Shown piece by piece: positions 49,430 to 55,286 of a stretch of 64,000 nt of DNA (the stretch's first letter is position 1; each line of letters starts with the position of its first letter). Source of the stretch: Thioalkalivibrio sp. ALJ21 (lineage in GTDB: Bacteria > Pseudomonadota > Gammaproteobacteria > Ectothiorhodospirales > Ectothiorhodospiraceae); assembly GCF_000378605.1 (NCBI RefSeq), contig NZ_KB905157.1, forward strand, positions 186,001 to 250,000. The letters are read 5' to 3'. The notes beneath the pieces were generated by a model. The model saw only the letters and a program-made list of their open reading frames with translations. It was not told where the DNA came from and searched no databases. The position numbers and the translations under genes were made by a program.

Positions 49430-50281
49430 TTACTCGATGATCTGGTTGACGTGTTCCAGACCGATCGCGTCGCCTTCCCAGTCCAGATTCCGGGTGGACG
49501 AACGCGGGGCCAGTCGGCGCAGTGAAGCGACCCCTTCGCGATCGATGTGGGCCAGGCGGTGGGGAGTGCCGACATGGCTTTCGATGTTCGCGGCCTGTAC
49601 GACGTCGCTGTAGCTGATCGGGGACTCGGGCTCCGGTTCGCGCTGGAGGTTCTCGTGGTCGGCGACCGCGCGGATGATCTCCGGCTCGAAGTTCCAGTTC
49701 TTCAGCATCGCGCGGCCGATTGCGACGTGCGCGGCATCTGCCGCTGCCTGCAGGGCGCGTGGATCCTCGTAGATCGCCGGCGTCTTCTCCGCACGGCGCA
49801 GGATCGGGATCATGCCGATGTCGTGCACCAGGCCGGCGAGCAGGGCGGTGTCCGGGTCCAGATGCGGATGCCGGCGCGCCAGCAGATAGCTAATGATCGC
49901 GACCTCGAGGCTGTGGTTCCACAACGCCTCCATGCGTTGCCGGATCGCGTCGTTCCCGCTTTGAAAGACCTCTTTCATCGACAGGGCGATGATGGTCTGC
50001 CGCGCCCGCTCCATCCCCAGTCGGGTCACCGCGGAGCGGATGGTCGCGCAGCGGCTCAGCCCCCGATAGGCGGGGCTGTTGGCATGGCGTACCAGCCGCG
50101 TGGCCAGCGCCGTATCACGAGAGATCAGGTTGACCAGGTCGGCGATGGAGCTGGTGTCGTCCTGCACGATGAACAGCGCCTGCACGGAAATATCCGGCAG
50201 GGTCGGGATGTCGATCTGCTGACGTTCCAGATCCGAGCGCAGTCGCTCGAGGAATTTTTCCACTTCCGCGCGGGTGGCCAA
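49430..50281 (-). CDS. HDOD-domain signalling protein
   Basis: The 283-residue protein has an HDOD domain beginning LPTLPDISVQALFIVQDDTSS-like, then LISRDTALATRLVRHANSPAYRGL, LGMERARQTIIALSMKEVF, and GLVHDIGMIPIL with the vestigial HD pair. HDOD proteins act in regulation, often with c-di-GMP or chemotaxis signalling, and generally lack phosphodiesterase activity. A TTG at 50281 with AGGGA upstream is the best start; a longer reading frame would overlap the divergent RNase P gene. It is probably co-transcribed with the BLUF gene. Confidence 0.85.
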   Translation of the reverse strand: MATRAEVEKFLERLRSDLERQQIDIPTLPDISVQALFIVQDDTSSIADLVNLISRDTALATRLVRHANSPAYRGLSRCATIRSAVTRLGMERARQTIIALSMKEVFQSGNDAIRQRMEALWNHSLEVAIISYLLARRHPHLDPDTALLAGLVHDIGMIPILRRAEKTPAIYEDPRALQAAADAAHVAIGRAMLKNWNFEPEIIRAVADHENLQREPEPESPISYSDVVQAANIESHVGTPHRLAHIDREGVASLRRLAPRSSTRNLDWEGDAIGLEHVNQIIE

Positions 50282-50417
50282 GGGTCGTCCCTGTATGGCT
50301 GGGAGGTCAGGCGGGATTATGCCACACGGTGTCGCCCTCGCCGATCGGAAGGTGAACCTGGTTGACGGGTTTGCGACCGCCGCCGATGATGGAGAAAGAA
50401 CCCGACAGGAGGTCGTG

Positions 50418-51008
50418 ATGCGCCGCTTTGTGCTGGATACCAGCGTGTTCACCAACCCGCATGTGGCGGGTCAGTTCGGTGCGGATCCGGAAGACATCCT
50501 GCGGACCTTTCTGCACCTCGCTCGGGACTGCCCGGCCGAGTTCTACATGCCGCTGTCGGTGTACGACGAGTTTCGCGGCATGCGCGATCTCGAGGCCCTG
50601 GCCGCCGATTTCGAGACCGTGGTCTGGGTACGCTCGCCGCGTCGCTTCGCCCTGACACTACCCAGCGACATCCTCTACGAGTTCATCGACGAGGTGCGTA
50701 CACGCATCGACCGCGGGCTGCGCATTGCCGAGGAGCACACGCGCCAGGCCGGTGCAGCCGAATCGCTCAAGCCGGAACTCATTACCCAGCTGCGTGAGCG
50801 CTTTCGCGAGGCCATGCGCAAGGGCCTGGTGGATTCGCGCGAGGATGTCGACGCCGTCCTGCTGGCGATGGAACTCGATGCCGAGCTGGCCAGTGCCGAC
50901 GAGGGCATGCGCAAGCTGGGCAATCGCATGGGGATCAAGCTGGTCACCGCCGACTACCTGCGTCGGGTGATGGAGAATCTCGCGGAGACGGAGCGCCCCG
51001 GCGCCTGA
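50418..51008 (+). CDS. protein-only RNase P, HARP family
   Basis: The 196-residue PIN-like protein starts MRRFVLDTSVFTNPHV with Asp7. It shows AEFYMPLSVYDEFR, SPRRFALTLPSDILYEFIDEVRTRIDRGLRIAEEHTR, DSREDVDAVLLAMELDAELASADEGM (Asp139, Asp143, Asp161) and MGIKLVTADYLRRVMENL. This is a strong match to the Aquifex RNA-free RNase P family (HARP, formerly 'RNA ligase partner protein'). HARP cleaves the 5' leader of pre-tRNA without an RNA subunit. Most bacteria use RnpA plus RnpB RNA, so this may be a second RNase P or serve other RNAs. The ATG at 50418 follows CAGGAGG. It converges on an RNA ligase gene. Confidence 0.93.
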   Translation: MRRFVLDTSVFTNPHVAGQFGADPEDILRTFLHLARDCPAEFYMPLSVYDEFRGMRDLEALAADFETVVWVRSPRRFALTLPSDILYEFIDEVRTRIDRGLRIAEEHTRQAGAAESLKPELITQLRERFREAMRKGLVDSREDVDAVLLAMELDAELASADEGMRKLGNRMGIKLVTADYLRRVMENLAETERPGA

Positions 51009-51024
51009 CCCCGGGCCCGGGTCA
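51006..51024. terminator. palindrome spanning both stop codons of the HARP-ligase pair
   Basis: TGACCCCGGG at 51006-51015 pairs with CCCGGGTCA at 51016-51024 with one bulged C. The TGA at each end is the stop codon of one of the convergent genes, so a single palindrome supplies both stops and could act as a bidirectional terminator. Confidence 0.55.
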
Positions 51025-52122
51025 GTCGTACTGGCGGTCGCCGGCCAGGGCGGAGGCCAGCGTGCCGGTGATGCGGTCGAACTGGCGTTCGAACTCCAGC
51101 AGCCAGTAGCCATCCTCCTCGCGCGGCCCGTCGTCGGCAAAGCTTACGTGACGTCCGCCCGTGGCCTGCATGTGATTCATGAAGTGCAGGGCGTTGGCAT
51201 GCTCGCGAAAGCGGCAGCGATAGCGATGGCCGACGTGCCCCTGCCGTCGGTGTTGAGCGACCGCGCCATGGAGCCCTGACAGCAGTGCCTGGCCCAGTGC
51301 CTGATCGAGGTCGGCGTGGTGCCGATCCGGGTGTTCGGACAGGAAGATCGCGAGCCGTGTCAGGCGGTTGGTGAAATACTCCGGCGGCAGGTCCAGTAGC
51401 TGTTCCGCGCAGACCCGGATATCGGAGACGCAGGAGCTCCCGGTCACATACTTGGCCCGGTGCAGCCCGTCCGCAGTCTTCAGCACCAGTCCCTCGGCGC
51501 CTTCCTCGTCCAGTCGCTGAATCAGGCGCCAGAGTGGCTTGGTGTCGCGCGGGGTGAACTGTCCGTGCAGTGGTGCCGGGGGTAGGGCGTGGCGCTCGAT
51601 CAGTGCGAACTTCTCCGGCTGGGGTACGAAGCCGGGGTGGCCCAGGCGCATCAGATCGAACACGAACAAGCCCACGTCATGGGCGACCCGGGGCGTGGAC
51701 CCTTCCAGGTACGGCGTATCCGGCCCGGCGATCTCCGCGCACAGGATCAGGTCGGGTTCGGCATCGAAGATCACCGGGTCCATGAAATCCACTACCCGGT
51801 CAGTGCTGAATGCGCAGACGTAACCGCCGCGGCTGAACGCATAGACGCGCCCCTGCCAGCGCAGGATGCGCACGTTGAAGCCGTCGATCTTTTCCTCCGC
51901 CCAGAACGGCTGCTCGAACTGCCGTGGCAGCCCGGCCTCCAGCGACTGGATGCGCCCGATCGACGGGTATCCGGGCACCACCGAGCCACCTGGCAGCACC
52001 ACGGAACCACGCGGATAGTGGTTCACCGGTTCCAGCAGGCGGGCGTATTTCAGTCCGTCGAACGTCAGCGCCTCGGCGCGACGATTCTCGATGGCTTCTT
52101 GCAGCACTTGGTGCTCGATCAT
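51022..52122 (-). CDS. ATP-dependent RNA ligase, Rnl3/Pab1020 family
   Basis: The 366-residue nucleotidyltransferase has the ligase lysine motif EEKIDGFNVRI (KxDG, Lys78), VYAFSRGGYVCAF, CAEIAGPDTPY, GLFVFDLMRL, and EGAEGLVLKTADGLHRAKYV (motifs III to V). A C-terminal helical domain follows. This pattern and length fit the archaeal-type dimeric RNA ligases (Pab1020/MTH1221 type), which join or circularise 5'-phosphate and 3'-OH RNA. Its natural substrate in bacteria is unknown. It overlaps the upstream transporter gene by four bases and converges on the HARP gene. Confidence 0.88.
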   Translation of the reverse strand: MIEHQVLQEAIENRRAEALTFDGLKYARLLEPVNHYPRGSVVLPGGSVVPGYPSIGRIQSLEAGLPRQFEQPFWAEEKIDGFNVRILRWQGRVYAFSRGGYVCAFSTDRVVDFMDPVIFDAEPDLILCAEIAGPDTPYLEGSTPRVAHDVGLFVFDLMRLGHPGFVPQPEKFALIERHALPPAPLHGQFTPRDTKPLWRLIQRLDEEGAEGLVLKTADGLHRAKYVTGSSCVSDIRVCAEQLLDLPPEYFTNRLTRLAIFLSEHPDRHHADLDQALGQALLSGLHGAVAQHRRQGHVGHRYRCRFREHANALHFMNHMQATGGRHVSFADDGPREEDGYWLLEFERQFDRITGTLASALAGDRQYD

Positions 52123-53789
52123 GCGGTTTCCGAATCCAGTGTCGAGTCGAGGTCCCGAGGATGGTTTTGCAGGATCTCGCTGTGGCGGCGCGCCTTGTCG
52201 GCCTGAGTCACCAGACGACGCGCCATGCTGATGATCCGCAGCTGCCGCTCCATCTCGGCCATGCTCAGCGAACCGAAGGTCCCCTCGCGCAGCAGCGCGG
52301 CCTTTAGTTCGGCATAGGCGATCTCAACCGATTGCACGGCCTCGGCAGCCGCGATGTTCTCGCCATTTTCGGGTTCCAGGTTGGCCAGGTCGAGGGCGCG
52401 GATAACCTGCTCCTGCCAGGTGCGACGCTGTTCGCTGACGGCCGGGCGTTCCTCGCCGGTGGATTGCCTGCGCAGGTCGCTGATCTGCTCGGCCAATACG
52501 GCAATCTCGCGATGATAGCGGGCGATGCGGACGACCTCGGCGATCCCGTGCCCTATCGCCTGCGGCATGGGGTGGTTGGCGGTGCGGGTGGCGAAATCGC
52601 TGATCGCCGCCGTCAGCTGCTCGACTGCGGCACGCCGGGTGTCCAGGCTGCCCTCGGCTGGTGGGTCGGCCCGCAGGGCCTCACGCGCCATGGAGTGGCT
52701 GATATCGGCGAGACGGTCGGTCTCCTGCAGCAGTGACTGCAGCGCCAGATCCGGCACGCCGGCGCTGTGCCGGTCAAGGAAACGCGGCCGGGCGATGTCT
52801 TCCTCTTCTGTGCGAAAGCGTGTCTGCAGGAAGCGGATCATCGGCGGGGCGACCGGCACCATCAGCGCCACACCCAGCAGGTTGAACGCGGTATGGAACA
52901 GCGCCAGCAGTACCGCCGGGGCCGGGGCCTCCCCGGTGCTGCCCCAGATCCAGGCGATCGCGGCCAGGAACCAGGGCAGGATAAGCAGGGCGACAATTGC
53001 GGTCAGGCCATTGAAGATCACATGGGCCGCGGCGACGCGCTTGGCGTTCGGGGTCGCGCCGATCACGACCAGCAGCGCCTTGACCGTGGTGCCGAGGTTC
53101 GCGCCAATCACGGCGGCGGCGGCCGCTTCCAGCGGAACCGCGCCGCTCATCGCGGCGGTCAGGGCCATGGCCATGGAGGCCGAGGAGCTCTGCATCAGCA
53201 CAGTCAGCAGCGCGCCGAGGCCGACCATGATGACCAGCCCGAGGAAGCCGGGGCGGGCCAGCGCGCCGAGGTCAAAGGTCGCGCTTAGGCCCTCGAAGGC
53301 CTCGCGCAGCACGTCGATGCCGAAGAACAGCAGGCCGAAGCCGGCCAGGGCCAGGCCCAGATAGCGCGGCCGCGCGGCCTTCATGAACAGGTAGAGCAGG
53401 GCGCCGATGCCGATCGCCGGCAGGGCAAAGGCCTCGATGCGGATATTGAAGCCGATCAGCGCGACCAGCCAGCCGGTCATGGTGGTGCCGACGTTGGAGC
53501 CGAAGATCACCCAGACGGACTGGCCGAGCGTCAGCAGACCGGCGTTGGCGAAGCCGATGGTGGCCACGGTGACCGCGCTGGAGGACTGCACCAGCGCGGT
53601 CACACCCATGCCCGAGGCGAGGGCGCGCGGGCGGGTGCGTGTCCACTGCCCGAGGATGTGTTGCAGCGCCTTGCCGCCGGCGGTCTTCAGGCCGTCGGTC
53701 AGCAGGGTCATCCCGAGCAGGAACAGCCCGAGACCGCCGAGGAAGCCGGCGATCAGGGCATAGGTGCTGACGGCTTCGGCCTCCAACAT
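52119..53789 (-). CDS. Na/Pi cotransporter family protein with PhoU-like domain
   Basis: The 556-residue protein has two inverted NptA-type repeats with the signatures VTALVQSSSAVTVATIGFANAG and TVLMQSSSASMAMALTAAMSG in about eight membrane helices. From about residue 340 it has a cytoplasmic helical PhoU-like region. The family (YjbB type) moves phosphate with sodium, usually outwards, when cellular phosphate is high. Its stop overlaps the RNA ligase start (ATGA), and it begins 21 bases after the beta-CASP nuclease gene, so an operon of unusual content is likely. Confidence 0.9.
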   Translation of the reverse strand: MLEAEAVSTYALIAGFLGGLGLFLLGMTLLTDGLKTAGGKALQHILGQWTRTRPRALASGMGVTALVQSSSAVTVATIGFANAGLLTLGQSVWVIFGSNVGTTMTGWLVALIGFNIRIEAFALPAIGIGALLYLFMKAARPRYLGLALAGFGLLFFGIDVLREAFEGLSATFDLGALARPGFLGLVIMVGLGALLTVLMQSSSASMAMALTAAMSGAVPLEAAAAAVIGANLGTTVKALLVVIGATPNAKRVAAAHVIFNGLTAIVALLILPWFLAAIAWIWGSTGEAPAPAVLLALFHTAFNLLGVALMVPVAPPMIRFLQTRFRTEEEDIARPRFLDRHSAGVPDLALQSLLQETDRLADISHSMAREALRADPPAEGSLDTRRAAVEQLTAAISDFATRTANHPMPQAIGHGIAEVVRIARYHREIAVLAEQISDLRRQSTGEERPAVSEQRRTWQEQVIRALDLANLEPENGENIAAAEAVQSVEIAYAELKAALLREGTFGSLSMAEMERQLRIISMARRLVTQADKARRHSEILQNHPRDLDSTLDSETA

Positions 53790-53810: not shown

Positions 53811-55211
53811 TTACAGGGTGATGGTCTCGCCGAAGGCGGGTACATGCGCCTCGGCCCCCAGCTCGTCGCGCAGGCCGGCGGCCAGGGCCTCGCGCGCTTC
53901 CGGCTCGCCGTGGACCAGATGGAACACCGGCTGGTCCTGAAAACCGCGTGCCCAGTCGAGCAGCTGGCTGCGCCCGGCGTGGGCGGAAAAGCCGCCCAGG
54001 GTGTGGACCTTCGCGTTCACTGCGACCTCGTCGCCCAGCAGCTTGACTCGCTCGGCGCCGTCCACCAGCCGCCGTCCCAACGTACCCGCCGCCTGGAAGC
54101 CGACGATCACCAGGTGCGCCTCGCGCCGCCACAGGTTGTACTTCATGTGGTGACGGATGCGCCCGCCATTGCACATGCCGGAGCCGGCAATGATGATCGC
54201 GCCGCCGGTGATGCGGTTGATCGCCATGGATTCCTCCACCGTGCGGCAGACCTGCAGCCCCGGCAGGTAGCCGTTCGGGTCGCCATTCGCGGCCTGGTGG
54301 AGTCGGTCGACGTCCTCCGGGTCCAGTGTCCGGCGCAGGCGGGCGTACAGCTCGGTGACCTTGATCGCCATCGGGCTGTCGAGGAAGACCTTCTGCTGCG
54401 GCAGGCGCCCGGCGTGGTGCAGCATGCTCAGGTGGTAGAGGATCTCCTGGGTGCGGCCCACGGCGAAGGCCGGGATCAGCACGTTGCCGCCGCTCTTGTC
54501 GGCCTCGGCCAGCACCTGCGCGAATTCCTCGACCGTTTCGTCCATTGGGCGGTGGTCGCGGTTGCCATAGGTGCTCTCCAGCAGCACATGATCCGCGTGT
54601 TCCGGGCGAGCCGGCTTGTGCATCAGCACCGCGTCGTCATTGCCGAGGTCGCCGGAGAAGATCAGGTGCCGGTCACGCCCGCCAGAGGGCACGATCAGGC
54701 CCACGATCGCGGAGCCGAGGATATGCCCGGCATCGCGAAAGGTCAGTCGGACCTCGCCCGCGATGGTGCGGGTGTCGCCGTAGGGGATGGCTTGGCAAAG
54801 CCCGAGGGTGGTCGCGACATCATCGATGTCGTAGACCGGCTCCAGCAGCGGCCTGTCCGCGCGCCGGCGCCACTTGTTCTCCCACTCGATGTCCTTGCTC
54901 ATCACGAACGCGGCGTCCTCGAGCATGATCTCGAGCAGCTCCTCCGTGCCCGGCGTGCAGTAGATCGGGCCGCGGTATCCGTCGCGCACCAGCTTGGGCA
55001 GTAGCCCCGAGTGATCGAGGTGGCCGTGGGAGAGGACCACCGCATCGATTGTTTCCGCCAGTTCGGCGAGCGAGGCGCGATTCGCCTCGTCCGCCTCGCT
55101 GTTGCCCTGGTGCAGGCCGCATTCCAGCAGGATGCGGGCGTCGTTGGTCTCGAGGAGATAACGCGATCCGGTGACTTCGCCGGTCGCGCCGAGAAAGGTC
55201 AGTTGTGCCAT
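53811..55211 (-). CDS. beta-CASP metallo-beta-lactamase RNase (CPSF73-like)
   Basis: The 466-residue protein has the metallo-beta-lactamase motif SHGHLDHSG (His62, His64, Asp66, His67), DAGHILGSA and FSGDLGN. It then has the beta-CASP module with ESTYGNRDH (motif A), LIPAFAVGRTQEILYHL, AGSGMCNGGRIRHH (motif B) and the late FSAHAGR with motif C. This is a YSH1/CPSF-73-type exo- or endoribonuclease, a family best known in archaea and eukaryotes. The ATG at 55211 (MAQLTFLGATGEVTGS) is chosen over an ATG six codons upstream. It heads the ligase-transporter gene run. Confidence 0.92.
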   Translation of the reverse strand: MAQLTFLGATGEVTGSRYLLETNDARILLECGLHQGNSEADEANRASLAELAETIDAVVLSHGHLDHSGLLPKLVRDGYRGPIYCTPGTEELLEIMLEDAAFVMSKDIEWENKWRRRADRPLLEPVYDIDDVATTLGLCQAIPYGDTRTIAGEVRLTFRDAGHILGSAIVGLIVPSGGRDRHLIFSGDLGNDDAVLMHKPARPEHADHVLLESTYGNRDHRPMDETVEEFAQVLAEADKSGGNVLIPAFAVGRTQEILYHLSMLHHAGRLPQQKVFLDSPMAIKVTELYARLRRTLDPEDVDRLHQAANGDPNGYLPGLQVCRTVEESMAINRITGGAIIIAGSGMCNGGRIRHHMKYNLWRREAHLVIVGFQAAGTLGRRLVDGAERVKLLGDEVAVNAKVHTLGGFSAHAGRSQLLDWARGFQDQPVFHLVHGEPEAREALAAGLRDELGAEAHVPAFGETITL

Positions 55212-55286
55212 GGCAGGAAGTGTACGCACGGTCAGGCCCGTCTGCGCAACCCGCTGGTGCTTTCCGGGCGCGCCGGGCGCTTCGGT

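What the first reader, a model, noticed from the sequence alone, without database searches (positions are those of the whole stretch)
50418..51008. Protein-only RNase P (HARP) in a gammaproteobacterial chromosome
The sequence shows near-complete conservation of the HARP landmarks (LDTSVFTNP, SPRRF, RIAEEHTR, SADEGM and the acidic PIN residues). HARP is established as RNA-free RNase P in Aquifex and occurs in a scatter of bacteria and archaea. Most gammaproteobacteria rely on RnpA and RnpB, so a second RNase P here raises the question of its true target. Whether rnpA and rnpB exist in this genome cannot be seen from the window.
Basis: partly seen in the sequence, partly recalled or inferred. 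Interest (0 to 1): 0.85.

Follow-up and report, generated by a model that had tools for sequence, protein, structure and literature searches.

The report
HARP nuclease paired with RNA ligase
A soda-lake bacterium (Thioalkalivibrio) carries a real protein-only RNase P-type enzyme (HARP) tail to tail with its usual RNA-ligase partner, next to a complete normal RNase P elsewhere in the genome; both the enzyme in such bacteria and the pairing are already published, but what the pair does there is still unknown.

Summary
In detail: window 50418-51008 (+) encodes a 196-aa HARP (NF003344 305 bits, cut-off 241; TIGR03875 217, cut-off 95.3), 66% identical to the solved HARP of the gammaproteobacterium Halorhodospira halophila (7OG5), with all catalytic aspartates and key spike-helix arginines. 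The surprise is smaller than stated. The window is Thioalkalivibrio, a genus already listed as HARP-positive. That pairing was published in 2025 (PMC12153264). I confirmed it independently: in 369 genomes of the class, HARP is in 17 and Rnl3 over cut-off in 15, all HARP-positive. Among 45 HARP-positive genomes 43 have Rnl3, including all 14 Aquificota without rnpB. HARP and Rnl3 trees match far beyond a ribosomal-protein tree. All 63 linked bacterial pairs are convergent, many overlapping. No third conserved partner was found. Best reading: HARP cuts a tRNA-like RNA and Rnl3 seals or circularises 5'-P/3'-OH ends; the bacterial substrate is unknown. Known kind, genuinely open function.

The parts
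50418..51008 (+). HARP (homolog of Aquifex RNase P; RNA-free RNase P / 'RNA ligase partner protein'), 196 aa, PIN_5 metallonuclease
51022..52122 (-). Rnl3-type ATP-dependent RNA ligase (Pab1020 family), 366 aa, motif I K78-I-D-G; converges on HARP with 13 bp between the two stop codons
   Evidence: TIGR01209 270.5 bits, cut-off 136.9; PF18330, PF09414; 3qwu, 2vug
49430..50455 (-). HDOD-domain protein, divergent from HARP (ORF bounds; its start codon is uncertain). A neighbour only, not a conserved part of the system
   Evidence: PF08668; conserved beside HARP only within Thioalkalivibrio
52119..53789 (-). Na/Pi cotransporter family protein. A neighbour only
   Evidence: conserved only within Thioalkalivibrio
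53811..55229 (-). beta-CASP metallo-beta-lactamase ribonuclease-like protein. A neighbour; tested and not supported as a partner

Best explanation
This is a bona fide HARP (homo-oligomeric PIN_5 metallonuclease of the protein-only RNase P family) that works with its convergent neighbour, an Rnl3 RNA ligase, as a specialised RNA cut-and-seal (processing, circularisation or repair) pair, not as the housekeeping RNase P, which the RnpA/RnpB holoenzyme supplies. Likely mechanism: HARP binds a tRNA-like fold with its spike helix and cleaves at a helix junction, leaving 5'-phosphate and 3'-OH ends; Rnl3, with ATP, joins such ends, mostly intramolecularly. SHOWN here: HARP identity, catalytic residues, presence of rnpA/rnpB, the ligase and its motif I, co-occurrence, linkage, co-phylogeny, purifying selection. 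FROM LITERATURE: HARP cleavage of pre-tRNA and its need for oligomers (PMC8266387); Rnl3 circularises C/D box RNAs in Thermococcus (PMC9014305). INFERRED: that the two act on the same RNA, and that this is their role in bacteria. The bacterial substrate is not identified.
For: HARP identity. RNP RNase P present: rnpB 330.8 bits, rnpA 98.8 bits. Class sample of 369 genomes: 17 HARP+, 15 Rnl3+ over cut-off, all within HARP+; a 16th carries a ligase fragment cut by a contig end (Fisher p 7e-25, not corrected for kinship). 45 HARP+ genomes: 43 Rnl3 over cut-off. Rnl3 is kept in all 14 Aquificota lacking rnpB and in the genomes that have it, so the link does not depend on whether HARP is the sole RNase P. 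HARP and Rnl3 tree distances correlate r 0.84; partial r given RplB 0.80, and 0.87 without Aquificota and Verrucomicrobiota; 0 of 2000 permutations reach it. 63 of 63 linked bacterial pairs convergent, in 18 of 24 HARP groups. dN/dS 0.03-0.07 (HARP) and 0.08-0.22 (Rnl3) among the nearest linked relatives. 63 of 64 tRNA genes encode CCA, and a Hydrogenobacter HARP cleaves CCA-bearing pre-tRNA about 10 times slower (PMC10652100).
Against: No substrate shown. C/D box RNAs, the proposed archaeal substrate, are not known from bacteria. Convergent genes are not an operon, so co-expression is not implied. Linkage alone can give matching trees without joint function. One HARP+ genome (G300/G394, MAG, 93% complete) has no detectable Rnl3. 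Deleting Rnl3 in T. kodakarensis, or HARP in two archaea, gave no growth defect (PMC12153264).
Confidence: 0.55

Rival explanations
1. HARP is a stress back-up RNase P that matures pre-tRNAs when the RNP enzyme is impaired (high pH, salt, cold); Rnl3 is separately useful for RNA repair in the same habitats.
For: All catalytic and tRNA-contact residues tested are conserved. H. halophila HARP, 66% identical, cleaves pre-tRNA in vitro (PMC8266387). RNase P RNA was down-regulated at 10 C in two Thioalkalivibrio strains (PMC8092127). HARP-positive bacteria are extremophiles (PMC12153264).
Against: Does not explain why Rnl3 is found only with HARP and shares its phylogeny. HARPs of Thioalkalivibrio nitratireducens, Alkalilimnicola and H. 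halophila were reported not to process pre-tRNA in another study, as cited in PMC12153264 (conflicts with PMC8266387 for H. halophila). tRNA genes here encode CCA.
Confidence: 0.25
2. HARP and Rnl3 do not cooperate; they were gained together on one DNA piece and are kept for separate reasons.
For: Identical 27-nt overlaps in distant bacteria point to one old arrangement inherited together.
Against: Where they are separated, in Halorhodospira, Aquifex, Thermocrinis, Hydrogenobacter and some Thioalkalivibrio, both are still kept, and in haloarchaeal megaplasmids they sit together in the opposite, head-to-head order.
Confidence: 0.14
3. A toxin-antitoxin-like pair: HARP as PIN RNase toxin, the ligase or an adjacent gene as antidote.
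For: HARP belongs to the VapC-like group of PIN domains (PMC10941002).
Against: No antitoxin-type ORF beside HARP, only a divergent HDOD gene; unlinked pairs persist; fixed in the genus with dN/dS about 0.1 or less; no HARP in phages, viral contigs or bacterial plasmids; no PADLOC hit.
Confidence: 0.04

Closest known systems
HARP of Halorhodospira halophila (Hhal2243, PDB 7OG5; PMC8266387)
   Same: Same family, 66% identity, same catalytic and spike-helix residues; from a gammaproteobacterium
   Different: In Halorhodospira abdelmalekii, its close relative, the ligase lies elsewhere (downstream of a dxs-like gene); here it is adjacent
HARP-Rnl3 gene pair (Seshadri and Gopalan, mBio 2025, PMC12153264)
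   Same: Exactly this pair, and Thioalkalivibrio spp. are named there as HARP-positive
   Different: The paper calls the order 'bidirectional'; here all linked bacterial pairs are tail to tail, often overlapping, and two haloarchaeal plasmid pairs are head to head. The C/D-box substrate proposed there cannot apply directly to bacteria
Aq_880, the RNase P of Aquifex aeolicus
   Same: About 54% identical (Aquifex aeolicus MAG protein); same active site
   Different: Aquificaceae lack rnpA/rnpB so HARP is the only RNase P; here both are present

Membership tests
HARP (RNA-free RNase P, TIGR03875/NF003344/PF08745) | Full-length match over curated cut-offs | tested here: met
HARP (RNA-free RNase P, TIGR03875/NF003344/PF08745) | Catalytic aspartates of the PIN site (Aq_880 D7, D138, D142 and the later one) | tested here: met
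   D7, D139, D143, D161; invariant
HARP (RNA-free RNase P, TIGR03875/NF003344/PF08745) | Spike-helix arginines needed for cleavage (Aq_880 R125, R129) | tested here: met
   R126, R130; requirement from PMC8266387
HARP (RNA-free RNase P, TIGR03875/NF003344/PF08745) | Oligomer (tetramer to dodecamer) and pre-tRNA 5' cleavage | not testable with these tools
   needs protein; close relatives give conflicting reports
Sole (housekeeping) RNase P of the cell | Genome lacks rnpA and rnpB | tested here: not met
   both present
Rnl3 RNA ligase (TIGR01209, Pab1020) | Full-length match, motif I KxDG, Lig_C domain | tested here: met
Published HARP-Rnl3 pair | Both genes in one genome, adjacent or within 5 kb | tested here: met
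   13 bp between stops
PIN toxin-antitoxin (VapBC) | Adjacent antitoxin gene | tested here: not met
   none found

The most novel reading that the evidence does not exclude
In bacteria that keep RNP RNase P, HARP and Rnl3 form a dedicated RNA circularisation or repair module with a non-tRNA (or damaged-tRNA) substrate, and the Aquificaceae later recruited HARP as their only RNase P; the overlapping convergent order makes the two mRNAs antisense at their 3' ends and couples their expression.
Probability: 0.3. Interest if true: 0.7.

Novelty: already known. Interest (0 to 1): 0.3.

Why it matters
HARP's role beside an RNP RNase P is an open question in RNA biology. Thioalkalivibrio gives a clean case: HARP in 29 of 30 genomes of the genus, absent from the 17 sampled genomes of other genera of the family, with an adjacent ligase and an intact rnpA/rnpB. 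If the pair were shown to circularise or repair an RNA in bacteria, it would explain why a slow protein RNase P persists and where the Aquifex RNase P came from. As it stands, the locus is another instance of a published pair.

Tried and rejected
(1) A third conserved partner: neighbour families clustered over 81 loci; only Rnl3 recurs across HARP groups. An apparent MnmE recurrence mixes different GTPases (EngA in L083). (2) beta-CASP RNase as partner: also near HARP in L052 and L099, but present in 162 of 369 genomes of the class; 13 of 17 HARP+ against 149 of 352 HARP- (p 0.01 uncorrected for kinship); rejected as weak. (3) Mobile or phage origin: none in phages or viral contigs; plasmids give only five haloarchaeal megaplasmids. 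(4) Defence function: no PADLOC hit. (5) A split or interrupted 23S rRNA as ligase substrate: the 23S match here is 2872 bp, full length. (6) CCA-less tRNAs as HARP's niche: 63 of 64 tRNA genes end in CCA. (7) Known structured RNA near the locus: none in the window except one tRNA-Leu 30 kb away. Two relevant papers were not held.

Full report
OBSERVATION. The ORF at 50418-51008 (+) encodes 196 aa. It passes the curated cut-offs of NF003344 (305 vs 241 bits), TIGR03875 'RNA ligase partner' (217 vs 95) and Pfam PIN_5 (206 vs 27), with no hit to a generic PIN toxin family. All seven distinct PDB sequences matched are named RNA-free ribonuclease P; the best is 7og5 of Halorhodospira halophila at 66% identity. 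Alignments with 12 relatives of the class and with Aquifex show the catalytic aspartates (D7, D139, D143, D161) and the spike-helix arginines R126/R130, equal to Aq_880 R125/R129 (function of those residues from PMC8266387). One point: that paper numbers the last aspartate D161, while in the Aquifex protein aligned here the equivalent is residue 160.

GENOME. The window is G000:C3:186001-250000 of a 2.96-Mb, 99.99% complete genome. Its nearest relatives in GTDB are Thioalkalivibrio (98% HARP identity to T. thiocyanoxidans ARh2). It carries one full rnpB (330.8 bits) and one rnpA (98.8 bits). HARP is therefore an additional enzyme. HARP is in 29 of 30 genomes of the genus (the exception is a 66% complete assembly) and in none of 17 genomes of other genera of the family. 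dN/dS between this copy and close relatives is 0.03-0.10: strongly constrained, not a relic.

THE PARTNER. On the other strand, 13 bp from the HARP stop, lies an Rnl3 RNA ligase (TIGR01209, 270.5 bits; Pab1020 C-terminal domain; motif I KIDG at 78; best solved relatives 3qwu and 2vug/PAB1020). That HARP and this ligase go together was published in 2025 (PMC12153264), which also names Thioalkalivibrio among HARP carriers. Independent check here: of 369 genomes drawn evenly from the class, 17 have HARP and 15 have Rnl3 over cut-off, all among the 17; another has only the ligase's C-terminal end at a contig edge, and one (G300) has none. Of 45 HARP+ genomes reached from the GTDB scan, 43 have Rnl3 over cut-off. 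Of the same 45, 29 have rnpB and 29 rnpA. The 14 Aquificota have neither, as known; the remaining misses are single ones (rnpB in G396 and G411, which have rnpA; rnpA in G395 and G400, which have rnpB). Rnl3 is kept in all 14 Aquificota, so the link does not depend on HARP being the housekeeping enzyme.

ANATOMY OF THE PAIR. In 81 loci (window included), 63 have the ligase next to HARP and every one is convergent, covering 18 of 24 HARP groups at 80% identity. Spacing between stop codons runs from an overlap of 54 nt to a gap of 1070. An overlap of exactly 27 nt occurs in Tectomicrobia, Aquificales and proteobacteria, which points to one inherited arrangement. In two haloarchaeal megaplasmids (L149, L152) the pair is instead head to head; in three others HARP has no annotated ligase within 6 kb. 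Convergent overlap means the two mRNAs are complementary at their 3' ends; regulation through this is inference only.

CO-PHYLOGENY. Tree distances of HARP and Rnl3 across 34 genomes correlate at 0.84, against 0.48 and 0.45 with ribosomal protein L2; the partial correlation given L2 is 0.80 (0.87 within the 24 genomes that are neither Aquificota nor Verrucomicrobiota), with 0 of 2000 permutations as high. The pair thus moves and diverges together, in part against the species tree. Linkage itself contributes, but genomes in which the pair is split keep both genes.

MECHANISM. Established elsewhere: HARPs cleave pre-tRNA 5' leaders as oligomers with Mg2+ or Mn2+, H. halophila HARP included (PMC8266387); another study, cited in PMC12153264, found HARPs of T. 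nitratireducens, Alkalilimnicola, H. halophila and Methylacidiphilum inactive on pre-tRNA; the reports conflict. HARP deletions in two archaea are silent (PMC10941002, PMC12153264). Rnl3 of Thermococcus circularises C/D box RNAs (PMC9014305). Best inference for this genome: a cut-and-seal pair on an unknown, tRNA-like RNA, with RnpA/RnpB doing routine tRNA maturation. C/D box RNAs are not known from bacteria (general knowledge), so the published archaeal substrate does not carry over. Tests that came out negative for candidate substrates: no intervening sequence in the 23S rRNA; nearly all tRNA genes encode CCA (63 of 64), so there is no large CCA-less tRNA pool that HARP would favour.

VERDICT. 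Observation confirmed; interpretation partly supported; the system is already known. What this adds: intact rnpA/rnpB in this genome, strict tail-to-tail and often overlapping order in bacteria, co-phylogeny beyond a species marker, and no third partner. Interest 0.3: a real open question, but not a new finding.

Noticed in passing
G000:C4:236370-240260 (locus L183:8372-12256): A tight array of 21 tRNA genes on one strand, covering many amino acids and largely duplicating tRNAs elsewhere in the genome; flanked by HNH endonuclease-, Fic- and DNA methyltransferase-like ORFs (read by eye), which looks like a mobile element carrying a tRNA array.
   Followed up: partly
G000:C2:286729-286800: A second, weak tRNA-Gln(TTG) (33.8 bits), the only one of 64 tRNA genes without an encoded CCA, about 140 bp from a normal tRNA-Gln(TTG); possibly a remnant from an integration.
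   Followed up: no
L075, L076, L077, L078, L081 (Methylacidiphilales-type Verrucomicrobiota): HARP and Rnl3 coding ends overlap by 54 nt in all five; in L075 a MnmE tRNA-modification GTPase gene lies directly upstream of and in line with the ligase (a GTPase ORF sits at the same place in L076 and L078).
   Followed up: partly
L148, L150, L151 (haloarchaeal megaplasmids): HARP without an annotated ligase within 6 kb, each with a HalOD1 output-domain gene next to it.
   Followed up: no
L052 (Ectothiorhodospiraceae MAG): The beta-CASP ribonuclease gene is directly divergent from HARP (about 100 bp), a different arrangement from Thioalkalivibrio, where it lies beyond the ligase.
   Followed up: partly
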